Positions 7,298-27,368 of a DNA stretch of 34,716 nucleotides are shown here, piece by piece. The notes beneath the pieces are model-generated. The model saw nothing but the letters and a program-made list of their open reading frames with translations. It did no database searches and had not been told where the DNA came from. This DNA is from a virus, in the IMG/VR virus record IMGVR_UViG_3300005826_000039, positions 1-34,716 of that record; one strand, written 5' to 3'. The position numbers and the translations under genes were made by a program. Numbering within the stretch: the stretch's first letter is position 1; each line of letters begins with the position of its first letter.

Positions 7298-8509
7298 ATG
7301 GGGAAAAGAGAATTCGAAGACGCAACGCCATTTCTCCTAGACTCTAGGAGTAATGATCTGCGCCTAAATTTAGGCGCGGGCAGCGCTCCTATAGATGGCT
7401 ACGAAAATGGTTTCGATCGGAAAAATGGGAAGTCTGCGTTCCCGCTAGATCTTGCAGACAACACATGCTCGGAAATTCGGGCTAGCCATTTATTCGAGCA
7501 CTTCTCGCACAGGCAAGGCTTAGATGTACTGCGCGAATGGGTGCGATGTCTTAAGCCTGGTGGCCTCCTAAAACTGGCGGTTCCAGATTTTGAGTTTATC
7601 GCGGCTGGATATCTGAATGGAATAGAGGACAACTGGCAGGGGTATCTCTGCGGCGGTCACATAGACGTTAACGACATTCACCTTGCGCAGTATGATGAGC
7701 CAGCACTATCGCAATTGATGCGTGATGCTGGTCTAGTAGGAATCCATAAATGGAAAGGTAACGATGGCGATTGCTCCTCCCTGCCTGTCAGCTTGAATCT
7801 TGCTGGATGGAAACCTTTATTGAATTGGCCAAGTGTTCACGCTGTCATGTCGGTTCCGCGGCTTGGTTTCATGGATAACTTCTTCTGTGTCACTGAGCTT
7901 GTCGCGAAGTTGCGGTGTCCGGTGCGCAAATTCACTGGAGCATATTGGGGGCAATGCATTACACGCAGCATCGAAGAAGCGATCCAACAGGATGCAGAGT
8001 ACATTCTGACTATTGATTACGACAGCGTGTTCCACGTTGATACAGTTTTATCGCTGCTCGCTACAGCAATTGCGTATCCACAAGTTGACGCATTAGTACC
8101 AATTCAGATGTCGAGGCGCGGCAAGACTCCGCTCATGACTGTTATCGGAGAAAATGGAGAAGTGCTTTCTGGAGCAGATCGAAGCGTATTAGAGCAGACC
8201 ATATTGCCGATCAAGACAGGACACTTTGGACTGACGTTGCTAAGGACAGAGAAGTTTGCACGCATGTCTCGCCCTTGGTTTGTCGGTGTTCCTGATAATG
8301 ATGGAAGGTGGGGCGATGGACGTATTGATGACGACATCCATTTTTGGAATGTCTGGCGAGACGCAGGTAATACGGTTTATGCCGCACCTAGATGTGTTAT
8401 CGGTCATACTGAGGTGCAAGTGATCTGGCCAGATGTCAACCTGCAACCGATGTTCCAGCACGTTTCAGATTTTTGGGCCGGCGGTGAACCGAGGAATACT
8501 TGGCGATGA
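7298..8509 (+). CDS. Fused SAM methyltransferase and GT-A glycosyltransferase
   Basis: 403 residues from ATG 7298. Residues about 21-150 look like a class I methyltransferase: LRLNLGAGS is the SAM-binding motif I, followed by ASHLFEHF and LREWVRCLKPGGLLKLAVPDFE, typical of the methyltransferase 11/predicted-sugar group. Residues about 180-400 look like a GT-A glycosyltransferase: TRSIEEAIQQDAEYILTIDYDSVF contains the DxD metal motif, and the C-terminal half has WGDGRIDDDIHFW. It could modify virion glycans or host surface polysaccharide. It sits inside the head operon, so it looks like an inserted cargo gene. No binding site precedes ATG 7298; CTG 7358 (giving MRLNLGAGS) has AGGAG 7 bases upstream, but inside a hairpin. 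The stop overlaps the next gene. Confidence 0.8.
   Translation: MGKREFEDATPFLLDSRSNDLRLNLGAGSAPIDGYENGFDRKNGKSAFPLDLADNTCSEIRASHLFEHFSHRQGLDVLREWVRCLKPGGLLKLAVPDFEFIAAGYLNGIEDNWQGYLCGGHIDVNDIHLAQYDEPALSQLMRDAGLVGIHKWKGNDGDCSSLPVSLNLAGWKPLLNWPSVHAVMSVPRLGFMDNFFCVTELVAKLRCPVRKFTGAYWGQCITRSIEEAIQQDAEYILTIDYDSVFHVDTVLSLLATAIAYPQVDALVPIQMSRRGKTPLMTVIGENGEVLSGADRSVLEQTILPIKTGHFGLTLLRTEKFARMSRPWFVGVPDNDGRWGDGRIDDDIHFWNVWRDAGNTVYAAPRCVIGHTEVQVIWPDVNLQPMFQHVSDFWAGGEPRNTWR
7334..7350 (+). promoter_or_regulatory. Hairpin containing a ribosome binding site
   Basis: CTCCTAG, loop ACT, CTAGGAG is a perfect 7-bp stem whose 3' arm holds AGGAG, 7 bases before a possible CTG start at 7358. A further perfect 18-bp palindrome, GCGCCTAAATTTAGGCGC, follows at 7360-7377. 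If translation starts at CTG, these hairpins would control it; if it starts at ATG 7298 they are internal. Function is inference. Confidence 0.45.
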
Positions 8510-11260: not shown

Positions 11261-13161
11261 TGGCCGACGCGAAGGTAAGAGTACGCGCAGTCGATGAGAC
11301 GCAGGCGGCGTTTAAGTCTGTCGAAAGGGGTCTTCTTGGTCTGCGCACTTCAGCAGCATCGATTACTAGAGCGCTTGGAGGTGTAACAGCAGCATTTACA
11401 AGTCTAGGAGCAATTGTCGGCGTAGGTGTATTTTCGCGCATGGCGAAAGATGCCATCGATACGGCGGACAATTTGGGAAAGCTATCCCAGAAAGTAGGGG
11501 TAAGCGTTGAGTCTCTATCCGCCTTGCAATATGCTGCGCAGCTCAGCGGTGTGGAAAGCGAGCAGTTACAGCAGGCATTAACCAGGCTCAATGTCACGCT
11601 AGGTGAAGCACAGCGCGGTAGCGCTGAGACTGCATCAGCCTTTGCTGCTTTAAATCTCGATCCAAGACAATTTCGCGATACGGAAAGCGCACTGCTTGCA
11701 ATTGCAGACGCATTCGCGCAGAGCGAGGATTCAGCAGGAAAGACGGCCGTAGCGGTCAAGCTGTTCGGGCGAGCTGGAGCCGAGCTTATACCGTTCTTAA
11801 ATCAAGGCAAAGCTGGCTTCGAGGAGTTAAGGAAGGAAGCAGAACGGCTTGGCTTAATTATCGATACAAAGACAGCCCAAGCCGCTGAGAAATTCAATGA
11901 TGATATAACGCGGCTCACATCGGCACTTACAGGCTTGGTGCGCGTACTGACTGCTGATATCGTTGGTCCGCTCAGTAACTTTACGCAAAAGCTTATCTCT
12001 GGACGTGAAGCTTTCGGCGGTTGGACTGCCTTTCTAACTCAATGGCCGACGCTGACATCTAATGCAGCAGATGGATTAAGGGAGGCAAACAAACAACTAA
12101 AGGTGCTGGAAGAAAGCAGAGGGACGGTTGCTTTTAAGCTCCTTGGTGATGGCGAAGTAAGGATCAAAGCCCTACAGAAAGAGATTAAATACTACGAGGA
12201 TTTACTTAAGGTACAGAGAGACATTGCCTTAAGTGGCAGGCAAGATGTCCGTGATCCCATAGATAGACGTCTAGAACAACAGCGGCAGGTTCAGCCGAAA
12301 CGGAAGATTGAATTCCAGGACGAGAAAGCCGCTAAAGCTGCGGCCGATGCCATCAAGAAAGCAAACGATGCTGCGCTCAAAGAGCAACAACGGCAACAGG
12401 AACTGAGGGGGCGCAATGCTGAGGAGTATTCTCAATACCTTCTAGATATTGAGTTAAAGCGCATTGATGAGACGACAAAAGCAGAAGCACAGGCAGCTGA
12501 AGATCTGCAGAAATTAAGGGCACAAAGCGCGGAAGAGTATTCTCAATATTTGCTCGATATCGAGCTAAAGCGAATCGCAGACACAACAGCAGCAGAAAAG
12601 AAGGCTATTGAAGATCGCGACAAGGAAGCCAAGGACAGCCTAGAGAAGCAAAAGGATCTAGTGAGAGATCTCGGCTTGGCGTTTACAAGCGCGTTCGAGG
12701 ACGCGGTCGTTAACTTCAAGTCTCTGCAGGACGTGCTAGACGGTATCGTGAAAGACATCACGCGAATCGCGGTGCGCAAAGGCTTTACTGAACCTATCCT
12801 TGGAGCAATTGGGGGATCAATCGGAGAAAGTGGCGGCTTTGACTTCAAGAAACTGCTTGGCAGTTTAGGCGGCTTCCTCGGCTTCCAGCATGGCGGAGTG
12901 GTACGTGGCTTGCAGCCGTTCGCAGCCGGCGGTATCGTGAACACGCCTACGCCTGCGCTTATTGGTGAAGGCAGAACAGCCGAGGCGATTGTGCCGCTAC
13001 CAGACGGGAAATCTATCCCAGCAAAAATTACAGGCATGCAGCCAGCGCAGGTGTCAGTGAACGTCTATGGCGTAACGGATACGCGTGACTTCCTGCGGGC
13101 TAGCGATCAAATCGCCTTCGCGACACAGCGGGCATTAAGTAAGGCGGCACAACGCAGATGA
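11260..13161 (+). CDS. Tail tape-measure protein
   Basis: 633 residues, mostly helical and Ala/Glu/Lys-rich, which sets tail length and is ejected ahead of DNA. The first 70 residues are typical (VRVRAVDETQAAFKSVERGL, then the hydrophobic VTAAFTSLGAIVGVGVF). Residues about 350-470 are coiled coil with a 37-residue tandem repeat: AEEYSQYLLDIELKRI begins at residue 387 and again at 424. The C-terminal part has the LGFQHGGVVRG, FAAGGIVNTPTPALIGEGRTAEAIVPLPDG motif conserved at tape-measure ends. At 633 residues a tail of roughly 95 nm is expected from the usual 0.15 nm per residue. Confidence 0.93.
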   Translation: MADAKVRVRAVDETQAAFKSVERGLLGLRTSAASITRALGGVTAAFTSLGAIVGVGVFSRMAKDAIDTADNLGKLSQKVGVSVESLSALQYAAQLSGVESEQLQQALTRLNVTLGEAQRGSAETASAFAALNLDPRQFRDTESALLAIADAFAQSEDSAGKTAVAVKLFGRAGAELIPFLNQGKAGFEELRKEAERLGLIIDTKTAQAAEKFNDDITRLTSALTGLVRVLTADIVGPLSNFTQKLISGREAFGGWTAFLTQWPTLTSNAADGLREANKQLKVLEESRGTVAFKLLGDGEVRIKALQKEIKYYEDLLKVQRDIALSGRQDVRDPIDRRLEQQRQVQPKRKIEFQDEKAAKAAADAIKKANDAALKEQQRQQELRGRNAEEYSQYLLDIELKRIDETTKAEAQAAEDLQKLRAQSAEEYSQYLLDIELKRIADTTAAEKKAIEDRDKEAKDSLEKQKDLVRDLGLAFTSAFEDAVVNFKSLQDVLDGIVKDITRIAVRKGFTEPILGAIGGSIGESGGFDFKKLLGSLGGFLGFQHGGVVRGLQPFAAGGIVNTPTPALIGEGRTAEAIVPLPDGKSIPAKITGMQPAQVSVNVYGVTDTRDFLRASDQIAFATQRALSKAAQRR

Positions 13162-14021
13162 GCTTCATAGAGACGCCACGCTTTCCTGATTACATCTCAT
13201 ACGGAGCGCGCATCGGTCCAGAGTATCGGACCGAGATTGTCACGCTCGCGAGCGGGTATGAATATAGGAATGTTTCCTGGTCGCAAGGCCGGTCCAACTG
13301 CACTATTGAAATGCCTCTCGAGGATACGGCAAAGCGTGATGAATTGATAAAATGGCTGCGGGCAATGAAGGGCAGAGGTCACGGGTTCCGGCTCAAGGAC
13401 TGGACTGACTACCAGGTCACTCGCACGACTGGCAGGCTAGGGACTTCGACCAACGGGACCGGCTATCCTACCTATCAGCTCGTGAAGCATTATCCTATAG
13501 GCGGGCTCGCGGAGAACCGCAATATACGCAAGCCAGTTGTAGGCACGGTCAAGATATACCGCGATAGCGTGCTCCAGACTGCAGGAGCTGGCGCAGGTAA
13601 TTATGCGTTGGATACCACTACAGGCGTGGTTACATGGGTCGCTAATGCGACCTCGACAGTTGCCAATATCACGCCAGGCACAACAACGTCCGTTGTGCTG
13701 AATGCAAGCATAGGGGTTGCAATCGGTGGCGAGCTATACCTTGCCAACCTGACAGGAACGATTGCGGCAACGCTCAACAACAAGGCCCACCAGGTCCAGA
13801 GCGGAACGCCGCCGACTTACGTACTCAGCACGAATACAACTGGCCTCACGTGGGGCGGCGGTGGCAGCGGATACCGCTATCCTCAAGAGACAGAGGTGCT
13901 TGACTGGGAAGGTGACTTCGACTTGCCTATGCGGTTTGCGCAGGATTACACCGCGCTCACGATCCAGGGGCCGACTGTATACCGCATCGATGAGATTCAA
14001 TTGATCGAAACGCGCGAATGA
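13158..14021 (+). CDS. Tail-tip protein, DUF2460/TIGR02217 type (GTA gp12-like)
   Basis: 287 residues. The start (FIETPRFPDYISYGARIGPEYRTEIV, SGYEYRNVSWSQGR, MKGRGHGFRLKDWTDYQ) is the signature of TIGR02217, a distal tail component in gene transfer agents and siphophages. The end also fits (EVLDWEGDFDLPMRFAQDY). Between them, residues about 164-241 form an extra beta-rich module (TTSVVLNASIGVAIGGELYL ... GGGGSGYRY) like the FCCH insert in the tail-tube protein. Start and stop overlap the neighbours by 4 bases. Confidence 0.88.
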   Translation: MSFIETPRFPDYISYGARIGPEYRTEIVTLASGYEYRNVSWSQGRSNCTIEMPLEDTAKRDELIKWLRAMKGRGHGFRLKDWTDYQVTRTTGRLGTSTNGTGYPTYQLVKHYPIGGLAENRNIRKPVVGTVKIYRDSVLQTAGAGAGNYALDTTTGVVTWVANATSTVANITPGTTTSVVLNASIGVAIGGELYLANLTGTIAATLNNKAHQVQSGTPPTYVLSTNTTGLTWGGGGSGYRYPQETEVLDWEGDFDLPMRFAQDYTALTIQGPTVYRIDEIQLIETRE

Positions 14022-21955: not shown

Positions 21956-22837
21956 ATGGCGGTGCAGCATCTCATACCAGGCGCGGGGCTAGTCAACGAG
22001 ACAGTCACCGCGCAGCATTTAGTCCCTGGTCACGGGCTAGTTAATGAGACTGTTGCTGCCGGCGGGCTATCGGTAAATCTCACTGGGTTAGCCGCAACCG
22101 GCGCAGTCGGAACGCTAGCTATAAGCCAGTCCATTGTACTGACTGGCCTTGCTGCGACTGGTGCAGTCGGCAGCCTTACACCGACAAGCGGCATAGCCGT
22201 TACGCTCAGCGGGCAGGCTGGCACGGGAGCGGTAGGCAGCCTACAGCCATTACTTGCTGTCAACCTGACTGGCCTAGAGGCTGCCGGTGCAGTAGGCATT
22301 CTGAGCCCGCAGCTAGCCGGTGCGGTGGAGCTAACCGGTCTCGAGGCAGATGGAGCGGTCGGCCTACTGAGTCCAGCACTAGCAATAAGCCTTACAGGCC
22401 TTGCTGTAACGGGCGCGGTCGGCTCGCTCACACCGCAGACAGGCGCAGGCGTTTTACTGACTGGCCTAGCTGCCAGCGGAGATGTAGGCAGCTTAGGGAC
22501 GACGTATGAGCTAGCGCTGACAGGCCTCGAGGCAACCGGCGCGCTCGGCACGATCACGCCAGCCATCACAGCAGAAGCTAGCCTTACCGGCCTGGAAGCG
22601 ACCGGCGCGATAGGTACGCTGTCGCTAGAGATAGCGGTCGATCTGACGGGCCTAGAGGTGAGCGCAGCCAGCGGCACGCTAGGCATTAGCACGCCAAGTG
22701 CGGTAGCGCTGACCGGGCTGCAAACTCTAGCAGCATTCGGTCAGATGTCTGTTACCGGTATCCCTGAGCCTTGGCAAGTCAGCCTTGCCGAGTCGCTATA
22801 TGCTCGCTGCGCAATATCCGAGAGGCCACTACATTGA
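21956..22837 (+). CDS. Repeat protein with 11 LTGLxATGAVGxL units, probable tail appendage
   Basis: 293 residues, almost no aromatic or charged residues in the body. Two 17-residue N-terminal repeats (QHLIPGAGLVNETV and QHLVPGHGLVNETV) precede 11 tandem units of 20-22 residues built on (N/V/A)LTGLxATGAVGxL, the last two degenerate, then a short Trp-containing tail. The regular hydrophobic/Gly pattern suggests a stacked beta-structure such as a fibre shaft. Related units occur in other phage virion proteins. The leftward frame is also long and open, probably from the repetitive codons rather than a gene. The stop overlaps a TTG start (TTGA at 22834). Confidence 0.72.
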   Translation: MAVQHLIPGAGLVNETVTAQHLVPGHGLVNETVAAGGLSVNLTGLAATGAVGTLAISQSIVLTGLAATGAVGSLTPTSGIAVTLSGQAGTGAVGSLQPLLAVNLTGLEAAGAVGILSPQLAGAVELTGLEADGAVGLLSPALAISLTGLAVTGAVGSLTPQTGAGVLLTGLAASGDVGSLGTTYELALTGLEATGALGTITPAITAEASLTGLEATGAIGTLSLEIAVDLTGLEVSAASGTLGISTPSAVALTGLQTLAAFGQMSVTGIPEPWQVSLAESLYARCAISERPLH

Positions 22838-23143: not shown

Positions 23144-23455
23144 ATGCCAACAGACACTTACATCATCAGCCAGAAACTTGTCAATGCGCTCATCATCTCT
23201 ATCTTCGGGAGTTTACTAGGCATAGCTGGCTATATGGTCATATGGGCACAGACAGATTCAGCATTTAAGGCTGACCTGATGGCTAGGATCGTGTTCATCG
23301 AGCGAGATGTAGGCTCAGTCAAGGCGAAAGTCGATGGCGGAATTCTTCCTCTAGCGCACGAGCGAATCGAGAACATAAGCGGCAGGCTTCGGGAAGTGGA
23401 GAAGAAAGTTAACCTGTTGGAACACGATAGGAGGAAGTATGGCGACACAGACTAG
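23144..23455 (+). CDS. Membrane-anchored coiled-coil protein, possible lysis protein
   Basis: 103 residues. Residues about 13-35 (ALIISIFGSLLGIAGYMVIW) form one membrane segment; the rest is a charged coiled coil (ARIVFIERDVGSVKAKVDG, ERIENISGRLREVEKKVNLLEHDRR). This layout resembles phage holin-associated or inner-membrane spanin proteins. ATG 23144 gives this frame; a nearer ATG at 23139 gives only a 26-codon frame. It starts the small cassette that ends the rightward operon, where lysis genes usually lie. The lysis role is inferred. Confidence 0.6.
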   Translation: MPTDTYIISQKLVNALIISIFGSLLGIAGYMVIWAQTDSAFKADLMARIVFIERDVGSVKAKVDGGILPLAHERIENISGRLREVEKKVNLLEHDRRKYGDTD

Positions 23456-23669
23456 CAGGTATCAGATGTCCATGAACATCGAATTATTGGAGCAAGGAAA
23501 AGAAGCAGAGGGGCCGATGTGGAAACTGTCTAACAGTTATTACGGCCTCGATTATGAAGGCGTAATCAATCTGCAAAAACTCATCGGTGGCGTAGCGGAT
23601 CAGATTACGAATATCGGAGTCAGTGCAGCAGAAAGCCTAAAGGGCGGCACTGGCAGCGGCAAGAAGTAG
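23439..23669 (+). CDS. Small protein next to the R-body-like gene, unknown
   Basis: 76 residues with a strong AGGAGG before ATG; overlaps the previous gene by 17 bases. N-terminal half polar (MNIELLEQGKEAEGPMWKLSNSYYGLDYEG), second half amphipathic (VINLQKLIGGVADQITNIGVSAAESLKGG) with a Gly/Lys end. No signal peptide. It might be a partner of the following R-body-like protein; this is based only on position and size. Confidence 0.6.
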   Translation: MATQTSRYQMSMNIELLEQGKEAEGPMWKLSNSYYGLDYEGVINLQKLIGGVADQITNIGVSAAESLKGGTGSGKK

Positions 23670-23711
23670 TCCGTCCTAGCATCCGTTAGGGCGTAACCAG
23701 TAGGAGGCCAT

Positions 23712-23990
23712 ATGGCAGATGATACCGGCGAAATCGGACGGGAAGCAGCAGAGAGCGTAGGGTTCGCAAACATCAAGACGGTTGGCGAGGGTCCCGCGTT
23801 CTATCAGAACATGGCATACGCGAATGCCATCAGCCACCAGCAAGGCATGAACACTATCTTTTCCGCCATTGTTGGCAAGGTCGCAGAGGCTATTATTAGC
23901 GTATCGCCTAGTGAGGGCGGTGCTGATGTCGCAGCGCTCCAACAGCTGATGAAAGGCGCGCAGACGACGCCACCGGTTACCGCGCCGTAA
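23712..23990 (+). CDS. RebB (R-body) family-like protein
   Basis: 92 residues with AGGAGG before ATG. The stretch NIKTVGEGPAFYQNMAYANAISHQQGMNTIF (about 20-50) fits the family pattern N-x-K-x-x-G-E/D-x-P-A followed by a helix and paired glutamines. RebB-family proteins polymerise into R-bodies, coiled protein ribbons that extend and break membranes, in Caedibacter and other proteobacteria. Here it lies between a membrane coiled-coil protein and two small membrane proteins. A role in lysis or killing is possible but unproved. The match is short and by eye; a generic helical virion protein is the alternative. Confidence 0.55.
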   Translation: MADDTGEIGREAAESVGFANIKTVGEGPAFYQNMAYANAISHQQGMNTIFSAIVGKVAEAIISVSPSEGGADVAALQQLMKGAQTTPPVTAP

Positions 23991-24215
23991 TTGGGCGAGC
24001 TAGAATACGCGGCAGGGTGGACGCTGTGGACGCTGCTAATGTGGTGGCTCAGCGGCAGCGCTACCCTGCTCGCTATTCTCATGCTTATAGCGATCTGGAT
24101 GGATAACAGGCCAATATCGCAAGCTCGCATACTAATAGACTGGCGGCGGATGATTACCAAGCCGCGCTTGTTGTTCGCGTTGTGGAAGATGCGGCACTTG
24201 ATGAAAGGACACTGA
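23991..24215 (+). CDS. Small membrane protein, TTG start
   Basis: 74 residues from TTG 23991, directly after the previous stop. Residues about 10-37 (WTLWTLLMWWLSGSATLLAILMLIAIWM) are strongly hydrophobic, probably one or two membrane passes, followed by a basic cytoplasmic tail (RILIDWRRMITKPRLLFALWKMRHLMKGH). No good binding site is seen; coupling to the previous gene or an internal ATG at 24039 are options. Possible holin or antiholin partner of the next gene. Confidence 0.55.
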   Translation: MGELEYAAGWTLWTLLMWWLSGSATLLAILMLIAIWMDNRPISQARILIDWRRMITKPRLLFALWKMRHLMKGH

Positions 24216-24216
24216 A

Positions 24217-24411
24217 ATGCTTGCAGGTTATAGGACGATCATCGCAGCTGCAGTTGCTCTTATCGCAGAGGTCCTGCAGCTGCTGGGTGTAGATATCGCA
24301 GGCGATCAAACTGCCATCGTTAACGGTGTGCTAGTTATCGGCGGCGCGGTCGGCGCTATCGTGTTTCGATTCAAGGCAACGCAGACTGTGGGCGGTAAGC
24401 CGCTTAAGTAA
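24217..24411 (+). CDS. Putative holin, two membrane segments
   Basis: 64 residues with AAAGGA before ATG. MLAGYRTIIAAAVALIAEVLQLLGV is the first membrane helix and a second (IVNGVLVIGGAVGAIVFRF) follows; the end is Lys-rich. This short MLxGYRT start with two helices is typical of small phage holin-like proteins. It is the last gene of the rightward operon; only 4 bases separate it from the end of the leftward operon. Confidence 0.65.
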   Translation: MLAGYRTIIAAAVALIAEVLQLLGVDIAGDQTAIVNGVLVIGGAVGAIVFRFKATQTVGGKPLK

Positions 24412-24415
24412 CTTG

Positions 24416-25054
24416 TCACTCATATACGCCTAGATATCCAGGAACCGTCAACACATCGACGCCATACAGCAGATTAGTCTGCGTGGCATTCGCATAGCCG
24501 CCGAGCGCGTCAAGGTACTCAAGGCGCTTAGGCAGCACGCCTGCAGTCTGATAGAACGAAACGCCTTGCTGTGTCGTGGATACGCGCAGCAAGTATTGCT
24601 TGCCCACCTCTAGGTGAACGCGATCACTTAGGACGGCAGTATGCCAGCCAGTCGCGCTGCCGATGGGCACGCTAGCAGAAGCCAGCACGGTCCCGCTAGC
24701 GAAGTCCAACACCTGTACGCTTACACTACCAGCCGAGCCCGTGCTGCTGCCTGGCGGCACGCATACATAGCCAATTTTTACTGCTTGGCTTGTACACATT
24801 TTGTAATAGATTTCTTGCGCAACAGTGAAGCTGCTCGTATCGACTGGCGCTGTCGTAGTAGATCCGCCAGCCATACCAGCAAGATACACGCGCACGCCCG
24901 TTGCCCATGCTGGCGTGCGGCTCAAGAAGCTGACGCTATACGCCACTCCTGGCTGCATTGTAGCCTTGGTGCTCGGCGTGTCTTGGTGGATGGATTGCCA
25001 CGCTCCGAAAGCAGGCAGCGCGATAAACCAGGCAAGAACGATTAGCTTTTTCAT
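24416..25054 (-). CDS. Secreted beta-sandwich protein, unknown
   Basis: 212 residues. A clear signal peptide (MKKLIVLAWFIALPAFGAW, cleavage near 18-19) is followed by a Ser/Thr/Gly/Val-rich beta-structured mature part with two cysteines (YKMCTSQ, GYVCVPP) that could form a disulfide. It is preceded by AAAGGAG and is the last gene of the leftward operon, after the RHS-like gene. Not a normal lytic-phage gene; possibly expressed in the lysogen to alter the cell surface, or a partner of the RHS-like protein. No family recognised. Confidence 0.65.
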   Translation of the reverse strand: MKKLIVLAWFIALPAFGAWQSIHQDTPSTKATMQPGVAYSVSFLSRTPAWATGVRVYLAGMAGGSTTTAPVDTSSFTVAQEIYYKMCTSQAVKIGYVCVPPGSSTGSAGSVSVQVLDFASGTVLASASVPIGSATGWHTAVLSDRVHLEVGKQYLLRVSTTQQGVSFYQTAGVLPKRLEYLDALGGYANATQTNLLYGVDVLTVPGYLGVYE

Positions 25055-25080: not shown

Positions 25081-26361
25081 CTAGCGAGGATTCGGGCGGA
25101 GGAATTTCGGCTCTGCTTGGCCATTCTTGCATCGGCCATTCTCAAGCTCGGCCTGTTTGAGACAACTGCGCATACCAGCATCGCTGATCATGTGCTCCCA
25201 ACACCATGCTTGATTCTCTTCTTCATATGCGTCGCAAAGCTTATCGCGCTCAGGAGTGCCTGGCTTCGGTATCGGCTTCGGCTTAAATTCATCGTCATCA
25301 GGAATACATACCGCAGCCAGCGGCGCTAACTTGCCGAGCGGCAAAGCTCCAGGGATGGGAATCATCGGAACGATAGCCTGCACGACGTTGAGCAGCTGGC
25401 TGCTCGGTAGCGTGGTGAGCTTCTGTTGGATCAAGGCCGCACCAGCTAGAGGCCACAGCCGATAGATGATCGGCAGCGCCACTGTAGCCTGGTTGCTCGC
25501 ACCCTTGGCGGCGATCATTGGGTAAGGCCTGGCACTAACCACATCCCGAGAACCGATAGGCCGTAGCGTCGTTACAGGCTGACCAGAAGGCCCGCCTAGC
25601 GCGGTCTTGACCTTTACGCGGATCGGCAGATTGCTTTCATTGCCGTATTCATACGTCCAGGTCGTCCCGTCTGGCGTCACGATCTTGCGCGGCTGCGTCG
25701 GGCTGGCCCATTCGTAGCTCGTGGTCAGGCTCTGGCCTACGCTCGAGACTTGCGTATACGTCTTGACCTGCGTGGTCTCTGCGTAATAGGCGAAACGCTC
25801 CTGCGTGCCATCCTGGCGCGTCATCTCAGCCACGCGGCCCAGCGTATCGTAGCTCTCTACTGTTACCCGTTCGCCTTCAGGGTCCTGCAGTTCTCGCAGC
25901 CTGCCCTGCGGATCGCGCGTCGGCGTATAGCCATAGCTGCGCCATAGCGCATCGTTCGCGACGATCTCATTATTTCGGCAGGTCGCACCGTCCGATGTCC
26001 AACCGTCCGGGCAGCCATAGGCCGGAAACACCGGATTGTTCTGTGCCACGATGGCGGGGCCGGCGGCAGGACCGATGCGGTACACGTTGCAAAGCCAATG
26101 ACCAGGCGCATCCTGCGTGCAGACGGAATACTTGGGGTACGCCGTACCGTTAAACGTGCTGGTCTTCTCGCCGCAGCGGCCCGCTTCCTCGACGCTAGCG
26201 AACGGACCGGATAGCGGGCAGTATTGCATGATGTAGCCGCGGATGGTGCTGGCCTGCGGAGAGTACAGCGGCGTAGCAGGCGTGGGCGTGCAGGCCTCCT
26301 GCGCCCAGGAGAGCGCAGGGGCTAGCAGTAAAAACAAGAGCATTTTCCTAAGCATTATCAT
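25081..26361 (-). CDS. Secreted RHS/YD-repeat protein with cysteine-rich ends
   Basis: 426 residues from ATG 26361, chosen because it overlaps the upstream stop (ATGA) and starts a signal peptide (LRKMLLFLLLAPALSWAQ). Residues about 22-130 are cysteine-rich, including WLCNVYRIG and FPAYGCPDGWTSDGATC. Residues about 145-250 contain RHS/YD repeats: RDPQGRLRELQDPEGERVTV, YDTLGRVAEMTRQDG, IVTPDGTTWTYEY. Then hydrophobic stretches near 295-355 and a cysteine-rich end (LCDAYEEENQAWCWEHM, RSCLKQAELENGRC). Full RHS toxins are far longer and carry a conserved core-end motif, absent here. It may act at the cell surface as an accessory (cargo) factor. Confidence 0.75.
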   Translation of the reverse strand: MIMLRKMLLFLLLAPALSWAQEACTPTPATPLYSPQASTIRGYIMQYCPLSGPFASVEEAGRCGEKTSTFNGTAYPKYSVCTQDAPGHWLCNVYRIGPAAGPAIVAQNNPVFPAYGCPDGWTSDGATCRNNEIVANDALWRSYGYTPTRDPQGRLRELQDPEGERVTVESYDTLGRVAEMTRQDGTQERFAYYAETTQVKTYTQVSSVGQSLTTSYEWASPTQPRKIVTPDGTTWTYEYGNESNLPIRVKVKTALGGPSGQPVTTLRPIGSRDVVSARPYPMIAAKGASNQATVALPIIYRLWPLAGAALIQQKLTTLPSSQLLNVVQAIVPMIPIPGALPLGKLAPLAAVCIPDDDEFKPKPIPKPGTPERDKLCDAYEEENQAWCWEHMISDAGMRSCLKQAELENGRCKNGQAEPKFLRPNPR

Positions 26362-26531
26362 ATCCCCATCGTTGTAAGATAGCCAATTGCCGCCTTGGCT
26401 TCTGCAATTTCGGCCTTGGCTTCTTCCAGGCGTTCCGGATGCTCGGCTTCGCATTCGGCTTGCGAGTCGTACTGGCACTCGCCAGTCTCGCCCCACTTCC
26501 ATTTCCCGTTTTCACATTGTTGGCATGGCAT
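26358..26531 (-). CDS. 57-residue CxxC protein, unknown
   Basis: A small gene with a strong binding site (GAAGGAGG then TTTAA before ATG). It begins MPCQQCENGKWKWGETGECQYDSQAECE, with a CxxC and two further cysteines, then an acidic Ala/Glu helix (ERLEEAKAEIAEAKAAIGYL). The cysteine pattern suggests a small zinc-binding head. Its stop overlaps the RHS-like gene start. Similar short CxxC-GKWKWG proteins occur in phage genomes, with no role that I know. Confidence 0.7.
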   Translation of the reverse strand: MPCQQCENGKWKWGETGECQYDSQAECEAEHPERLEEAKAEIAEAKAAIGYLTTMGI

Positions 26532-26561: not shown

Positions 26562-27368
26562 CTATTTAGCCCGTTTCGCGAGTTGCTTTGATAGATCGTA
26601 CGCGGCTCGGTAGAGATAGAACAGCGCCCTGGCGTCCTCTAGCTGGTCGTAATGGCGGTGCTCGAGGTCCGCGTATTCTTTCGAGAAGCGTACGACGTGA
26701 AAGCCCTTAACCTCTATGCCTCTGCATTCCTGCAACAGCATCGAATATGCTGCGACTTGCATCAACACCTCTGGGTAAATCCCGCCGCTAGTCTTCCAGT
26801 CCAGCAGGACGACGTTTCCTGTCTTGCTCTCAATACCTAATGCATCGAACGTGCCACCGATTTGTAAATGTTCTGAAACTAGCGGCACCTCTACTGCAAT
26901 GAAGCGCTCTATCCAGCGATCACGCCACTTCAGCCAAGCCTCTACGCCTGAGCGGATCTTAGGATCTTCCGGCAGCCGCAGCGGATCGTCGCATATGTCG
27001 TGCTCGATCCAGTCATGGACGGATGCACCTATACTGCCCGCTTCTTTAACCTGCTCGTGTAGCTGCTTGCCCTCGAGGCCTTGCTGATAAGCCCACTGGA
27101 TCAGCCCGCCGGAATCCTTGTATCTGCTGCAGATCGTCGTGACGCTTGGAACGATCTTGCCGTCTTTGTTTTTGTAGCGGGCAGGTCGCCCGCCTCCGCG
27201 TTCAATCTTTAAAGTTGGCATTTCACCCTTACCGAGACAAGCCCAACAAATAACATTTCTAGTTCCATGACACTTCGCACATGCTCCATTGTGTTTAGTA
27301 TCTGAGCAGCCTTGGCAGACGACTGATCCTAAGCCATTACAGTAAGAGCATGAAGTTAAATTCACCAT
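26562..27368 (-). CDS. RecB/Cas4-type PD-(D/E)XK nuclease with DnaJ-like zinc domain
   Basis: 268 residues. Residues 1-49 hold four CxxC pairs (C7/C10, C18/C21, C30/C33, C41/C44), several as CxxCxG, spaced like the DnaJ cysteine-rich zinc domain. Residues 50-268 are a nuclease: GGTFDALG provides an acidic residue near 173, VLLDWKTSGG (about 184-193) is the D...D/ExK core, and YPEVLMQVAAYSMLL is the QxxxY motif. Such enzymes resect DNA ends for recombination or replication. A second start, ATG 27221, preceded by AAGGG, would give the nuclease alone. It follows the OB-like gene in the leftward operon. Confidence 0.82.
   Translation of the reverse strand: MVNLTSCSYCNGLGSVVCQGCSDTKHNGACAKCHGTRNVICWACLGKGEMPTLKIERGGGRPARYKNKDGKIVPSVTTICSRYKDSGGLIQWAYQQGLEGKQLHEQVKEAGSIGASVHDWIEHDICDDPLRLPEDPKIRSGVEAWLKWRDRWIERFIAVEVPLVSEHLQIGGTFDALGIESKTGNVVLLDWKTSGGIYPEVLMQVAAYSMLLQECRGIEVKGFHVVRFSKEYADLEHRHYDQLEDARALFYLYRAAYDLSKQLAKRAK

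What the first reader, a model, noticed from the sequence alone, without database searches (positions are those of the whole stretch)
23144..24411. R-body (RebB)-like protein in the phage lysis position
Seen: NIKTVGEGPAF and a paired-Gln helix like RebB proteins, between a membrane coiled-coil gene and two membrane genes, at the end of the late operon. Known: RebB-family proteins build R-bodies, ribbons that unroll and break membranes. Inference: this phage may use an R-body-like polymer for lysis, killing of competitors or delivery. This would be a new kind of phage lysis or effector cassette.
Basis: partly seen in the sequence, partly recalled or inferred. Interest (0 to 1): 0.75.

Follow-up and report, generated by a model that had tools for sequence, protein, structure and literature searches.

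The report
Phage relatives of R-body proteins
A small late gene of this uncultured phage is a distant relative of the proteins that build bacterial R-body ribbons, and belongs to a phage-only family ending in a nearly unchanging short tail; it is probably not an R-body itself, but it links phages to R-bodies.

Summary
The gene is real (23712-23990, 92 aa, good ribosome site) and the RebB resemblance is real homology, though below Pfam's cut-off (19.7 of 24 bits). It belongs to an uncharacterised phage family: 22 IMG/VR contigs besides this window. 20 of 23 proteins end in MKGAQ[T/S]T-x-P, conserved as protein, not as DNA. Reciprocal test: the phage profile, run over 398 Pseudomonadota genomes, hit 10: one phage-type copy, 7 at true reb genes, 2 unrelated frames. 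Phage and cell proteins fall on two sides of one well-supported branch. But marks of R-body subunits fail: no QITD (0 of 23), twice the charge, one copy per phage record instead of a cluster. The "lysis position" is not conserved: relatives sit beside terminase, capsid or tail genes. So: homologous to Reb yes; R-body lysis cassette not supported. Best guess: a late, self-associating helical accessory protein whose C-terminal peptide docks on a conserved partner. A 2013 survey found no Reb in phages; the papers I searched report none. New variant of a known kind, interest 0.58.

The parts
23712..23990 (+). Reb-superfamily phage protein, 92 aa (the feature itself)
   Evidence: ORF and ribosome site; PF11747 sub-threshold; family alignment A1; reciprocal profile searches
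23769..23789 (+). NIKTVGE: the N-x-K-x-x-x-[D/E] motif shared with cell Reb proteins
   Evidence: 17 of 23 phage members; KXXXD/E is one of the diagnostic Reb motifs of PMC13430693
23823..23843 (+). NAISHQQ: counterpart of the NAV...QQ(Q) motif of Reb proteins
   Evidence: hhalign A1/A2; counts
23940..23981 (+). QQLMKGAQTTPPVT: phage-specific, nearly invariant C-terminal peptide
   Evidence: 20 of 23 members; synonymous codons vary; all 18 IMG/VR stretches with the coding pattern are Reb-like
23439..23669 (+). 76-aa protein X, probable partner; similar small genes beside the Reb-like gene in L004 and L006
   Evidence: three loci; 21% and 29% identity to the window's copy; weak
23144..23455 (+). 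103-aa protein with one membrane segment and a coiled coil
   Evidence: phrog_1863 (unknown function) E 0.0017
23991..24215 (+). membrane protein, start uncertain (TTG 23991 or later)
24217..24411 (+). 64-aa membrane protein, weak holin match
   Evidence: phrog_13404 E 0.0014

Best explanation
Shown: a late phage gene encodes a distant member of the Reb superfamily (the family of R-body subunits), in a phage-specific branch with a strongly conserved C-terminal peptide. Inferred: the helical core self-associates into a modest, soluble oligomer or short filament (not a giant insoluble ribbon), and the C-terminal peptide docks on a conserved partner, so that the protein acts as an accessory assembly or adaptor protein late in infection, often beside a small coiled-coil or membrane protein. 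It is an old relative of R-body subunits rather than a phage R-body. Split: homology about 0.93; self-association plus docking as described about 0.4.
For: PF11747 is the only recurrent Pfam match (9 of 21). hhalign phage vs cell: probability 92.3%, E 5.6e-7, 60 columns in register. The phage profile hits 4 of 369 and 10 of 398 genomes; apart from G001 (phage-type copy), 3 of 3 and 7 of 9 of these hits are at reb genes found independently by PF11747. Phage/cell split 99/96. Tag codons vary at synonymous positions; window vs L001 codon-position differences 18/10/53, so the protein is under selection. AlphaFold gives three helices with a break at residue 26, next to GEGPA, but at low confidence (pLDDT 63.5). 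Neighbours: coiled-coil partner Y at 8 of 21 loci, six of them by construction of the profile.
Against: No structure, no experiment. The model is poor. The core carries about twice the charge of cell Reb proteins, so polymerisation is not assured. No single partner is shared by all loci. Three of 23 members lack the full tag, so it is not needed everywhere. Most members were found with patterns that include the tag, which inflates its frequency.
Confidence: 0.42

Rival explanations
1. Virion protein: the Reb-like protein is an accessory part of head or tail, or an internal protein packaged through its C-terminal peptide (compare cargo peptides of HK97-fold encapsulins, recalled).
For: In L038 it lies directly between a tail protein (phrog_290) and a gene matching phrog_569 (tail); in L036 just behind capsid/protease and head decoration (phrog_122); in L005, L004, L042 and L047 within about 1.5 kb of the large terminase.
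Against: Position differs from phage to phage, whereas virion genes mostly keep their order; the tag is invariant while these phages have unlike terminases.
Confidence: 0.2
2. Adaptor for a conserved host protein (takeover or superinfection exclusion): the invariant peptide docks on a host factor.
For: A peptide kept nearly letter for letter in unlike phages fits a binding partner that does not change.
Against: No host partner known; late-region location is less usual for takeover genes; tag missing in L004 and L006 and broken in L005.
Confidence: 0.18
3. One reading: R-body-like ribbon used for lysis, killing or delivery.
For: Homology to Reb; membrane genes around it in the window, and more membrane ORFs near the gene than far from it (27 in 93 kb near, 23 in 170 kb far, crude).
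Against: QITD absent (0 of 23), doubled charge, single copy, no conserved lysis position, no named endolysin nearby in the window.
Confidence: 0.1
4. Chance likeness of an Ala/Gln-rich helix to Reb, no common descent.
For: The PF11747 matches of the window whose scores were printed are under Pfam's cut-off; low-complexity helices can imitate each other.
Against: Reciprocal genome searches land on reb genes; 13 of 21 members exceed 10 bits against 6 of 4200 shuffles; same motif order NxKxxx[DE], NA, QQ.
Confidence: 0.06

Closest known systems
RebB / R-body structural proteins (PF11747; RebA/RebB of Caedibacter taeniospiralis, RebP1/RebP2 of Pseudomonas aeruginosa PA14)
   Same: Size about 90-110 aa, helical, same order of N-x-K-x-x-x-[D/E], NA and QQ motifs; profile-profile match over 60 columns
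   Different: No QITD, more charge, one copy per record, phage late region, phage-only C-terminal peptide
Secondary Reb proteins (groups S1-S4 of PMC13430693; HP1.3/HP1.4 of PMC3583457)
   Same: Distant Reb relatives lacking some of the signature motifs
   Different: They lie in bacterial reb clusters; the phage family does not, and none of the 9 cell Reb proteins of alignment A2 carries the tag
pKAP298/pKAP51, the R-body plasmid of Caedibacter, suspected to derive from a phage
   Same: A proposed link of Reb and phage genes on one element
   Different: There bona fide reb genes on a plasmid; here a Reb-like gene inside a tailed phage's late region

Membership tests
RebB family (PF11747) | Profile match over the curated cut-off (24 bits) | tested here: not met
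   19.7 bits, E 9e-4; 14.1 bits in the six-frame search
RebB family (PF11747) | Homology by profile-profile and reciprocal search | tested here: met
   hhalign 92.3%, E 5.6e-7
Primary Reb (motifs of PMC13430693) | QITD(N) signature | tested here: not met
   0 of 23 phage proteins; 15 of 23 cell Reb domains
Primary Reb (motifs of PMC13430693) | KXXXD/E | tested here: met
   window KTVGE; 17 of 23 phage, 16 of 23 cell
Primary Reb (motifs of PMC13430693) | NAV and QQ(Q) | tested here: inconclusive
   window NAI and HQQ; phage NAV 3, NA[VILAT] 13, QQ 12 of 23; cell NAV 13, NA[VILAT] 21, QQ 20 of 23
Primary Reb (motifs of PMC13430693) | Very few charged residues in the core | tested here: not met
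   15.7% (window 13.8%) against 7.0% in cells
R-body system | Cluster of several reb genes | tested here: not met
   1 copy in the window and in 21 of 22 other records, 2 in G379; records may be incomplete
R-body system | SDS-insoluble coiled ribbon that extends | not testable with these tools
   needs expression and electron microscopy
Phage lysis cassette | Holin and endolysin neighbours | tested here: inconclusive
   weak holin match at 24217-24411; no endolysin named; position not conserved

The most novel reading that the evidence does not exclude
Tailed phages carry their own Reb branch: a phage-specific, Reb-fold assembly device with a dedicated C-terminal docking peptide. Phages would then be a second home, perhaps the source, of the R-body building block, which would bear on the old unproven idea that R-bodies come from phages.
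Probability: 0.25. Interest if true: 0.82.

Novelty: new variant of a known kind. Interest (0 to 1): 0.58.

Why it matters
A phage origin of R-bodies has been suggested since phage-like particles were seen with them (passages of PMC3583457 and PMC7297999). [quoted passage not shown] A phage family with a Reb core makes the question testable, and the near-invariant peptide gives a handle for finding its partner.

Tried and rejected
Named phages: tblastn of five family members against 50,697 phage records gave nothing beyond one E=7 match; partner proteins gave nothing; a cell RebB gave no phage match, but 17 plasmid records. One family member against plasmids: nothing. Solved structures: no match below E 0.2 for the phage profile and none up to E 1 for the cell Reb profile. 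A DNA-level explanation of the tag is rejected: synonymous codons vary. The genome contigs pattern scan gave 3 stretches: L033 is true, L034 and L035 lie in unrelated frames. The structure model is too poor for fold searches, so none was run. Two further viral scans gave no new records. My first gene selection lost the Reb-like gene at 9 of 24 loci and was replaced; L004 is still miscalled there. The cell domains were read on the wrong strand for eight loci and redone; one search is not used. The phrog_10775 tail match at L049 is weak (E 2.9e-5).

Full report
Observation. The ORF at 23712-23990 is a well-formed small gene: ATG with AGGAGG just upstream, 92 aa. Pfam's RebB (PF11747) is its only match, E 9e-4, 19.7 bits, under the 24-bit cut-off; a six-frame search of the record gives the same single place at 14.1 bits.

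Family. The window is an IMG/VR virus record and its large terminase matches phrog_15; the best tblastn matches are Wolbachia phage WO at about 44% identity. Scans of IMG/VR gave 13, then 18, then 19 loci, 22 distinct contigs in all besides the window, some of them near-copies. The pattern for MKGAQTT-x-P found 18 stretches and all 18 encode small Reb-like proteins. In the collection of 84,980 species genomes the pattern occurs in three stretches; only L033, a 3.2-kb contig of a gammaproteobacterial MAG, is a true member. Of 23 proteins 20 carry the tag; L004 and L006 lack it and L005 has a broken form. Since most were found with patterns that contain the tag, its frequency is biased upward; its conservation is not a DNA effect, because codons of the 18 members printed differ at synonymous positions.

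Homology to Reb. (a) 9 of 21 members match PF11747, best E 8.5e-5; no other Pfam family matches more than one. (b) A profile of 9 cell Reb proteins scores the window at 17.7 bits and 13 of 21 members above 10 bits; 6 of 4200 shuffles exceed 10 bits, maximum 16.3. (c) hhalign: 92.3%, E 5.6e-7, 60 columns. (d) Reciprocal search: in 369 gammaproteobacterial genomes the phage profile hits four, G001 (its own type) and three that carry reb genes, at those genes. In 398 Pseudomonadota genomes it hits ten: G001, seven at reb genes, and two at long frames without a RebB match (G434, G744); PF11747 is over its cut-off in nine genomes, so seven of nine are found. The two samples share some genomes. (e) Tree of 23 phage and 9 cell proteins: one branch, 99/96, divides them; the cell sample comes from three genomes, and several rows are long branches.

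Not an R-body subunit by published marks. PMC13430693 (abstract, passages, section 7, part 1 of sections 15 and 20 seen) names QITDN, KXXXD/E, NAV and QQ(Q), and a core with very few charges. Phage proteins: QITD 0 of 23, KXXXD/E 17 of 23, NAV 3, NA[VILAT] 13, QQ 12; charge 15.7% against 7.0% in 23 cell domains. One copy per record in 21 of 22, while reb-bearing cell genomes that I saw usually have several. PA14 R-bodies depend on rebP1P2, a pair (PMC8322103, passages).

Surroundings. In the window the gene follows tail and tail fibre genes and precedes two membrane genes, one with a weak holin match. Elsewhere it lies behind capsid and head decoration (L036), between two tail-matched genes (L038), within about 1.5 kb of the large terminase (L004, L005, L042, L047), or near a weakly matched tail gene (L049). 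I named neighbours by profile in only part of the 21 loci. Membrane ORFs are denser within 2.5 kb of the gene (27 in 93 kb) than further away (23 in 170 kb), by a crude ORF test that includes doubtful ORFs. A coiled-coil neighbour Y was found at 8 of 21 loci, six of which built its profile. The window's neighbour X (23439-23669) resembles proteins next to the gene in L004 and L006 only, the three that built its profile.

Mechanism. Shown: homology, late-region location, selection on the protein (codon-position differences 18/10/53 against L001), a near-invariant C-terminal peptide. Inferred: helical self-association and docking of that peptide on a partner. A ribbon for lysis is possible but has no positive evidence beyond kinship and membrane neighbours. 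The AlphaFold model (three helices, pLDDT 63.5) cannot decide.

Literature. PMC3583457 (passages and section 11) reports no Reb homologue in phages and no sign of reb loci in prophages; PMC7297999 (passages) reviews the phage suspicion; PMC10688885 (passages) was not relevant. Searches for a phage-borne Reb and for the tag peptide listed no report of one; most listed papers I saw only in the listing, and preprints and most subscription papers are not held.

Noticed in passing
window 25081-26502 (-) and 24416-25054 (-): Two genes convergent to the late operon: a 473-aa protein with a signal-like N-terminal stretch and RHS repeats (PF05593, E 5.7e-10), and a 212-aa DUF4082 protein with a signal-like start; possible secreted cargo genes.
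   Followed up: no
window 26562-27368 (-): Exonuclease (phrog_298, E 7.8e-34) with an N-terminal Cys-rich stretch that resembles the DnaJ zinc domain (Pfam E 0.78).
   Followed up: no
window 21956-22837 (+): 293-aa protein made of many imperfect LTGLxATGAVGxL repeats, no family match.
   Followed up: no
window 13158-14021 (+): Gene in the tail operon matching a glycoside hydrolase family (phrog_2913, E 1e-40); perhaps a tail-borne lysin.
   Followed up: no
L048 7698-8078 and 8135-8446: Two tandem tagged Reb-like genes, the only record of 22 with two copies.
   Followed up: partly
L043, L044, L045 around 7908-8240: Tagged Reb-like gene beside genes that look like a radical-SAM enzyme and glycosyl- or methyltransferases (by eye from the translations), with a 62-aa coiled-coil gene just upstream.
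   Followed up: no
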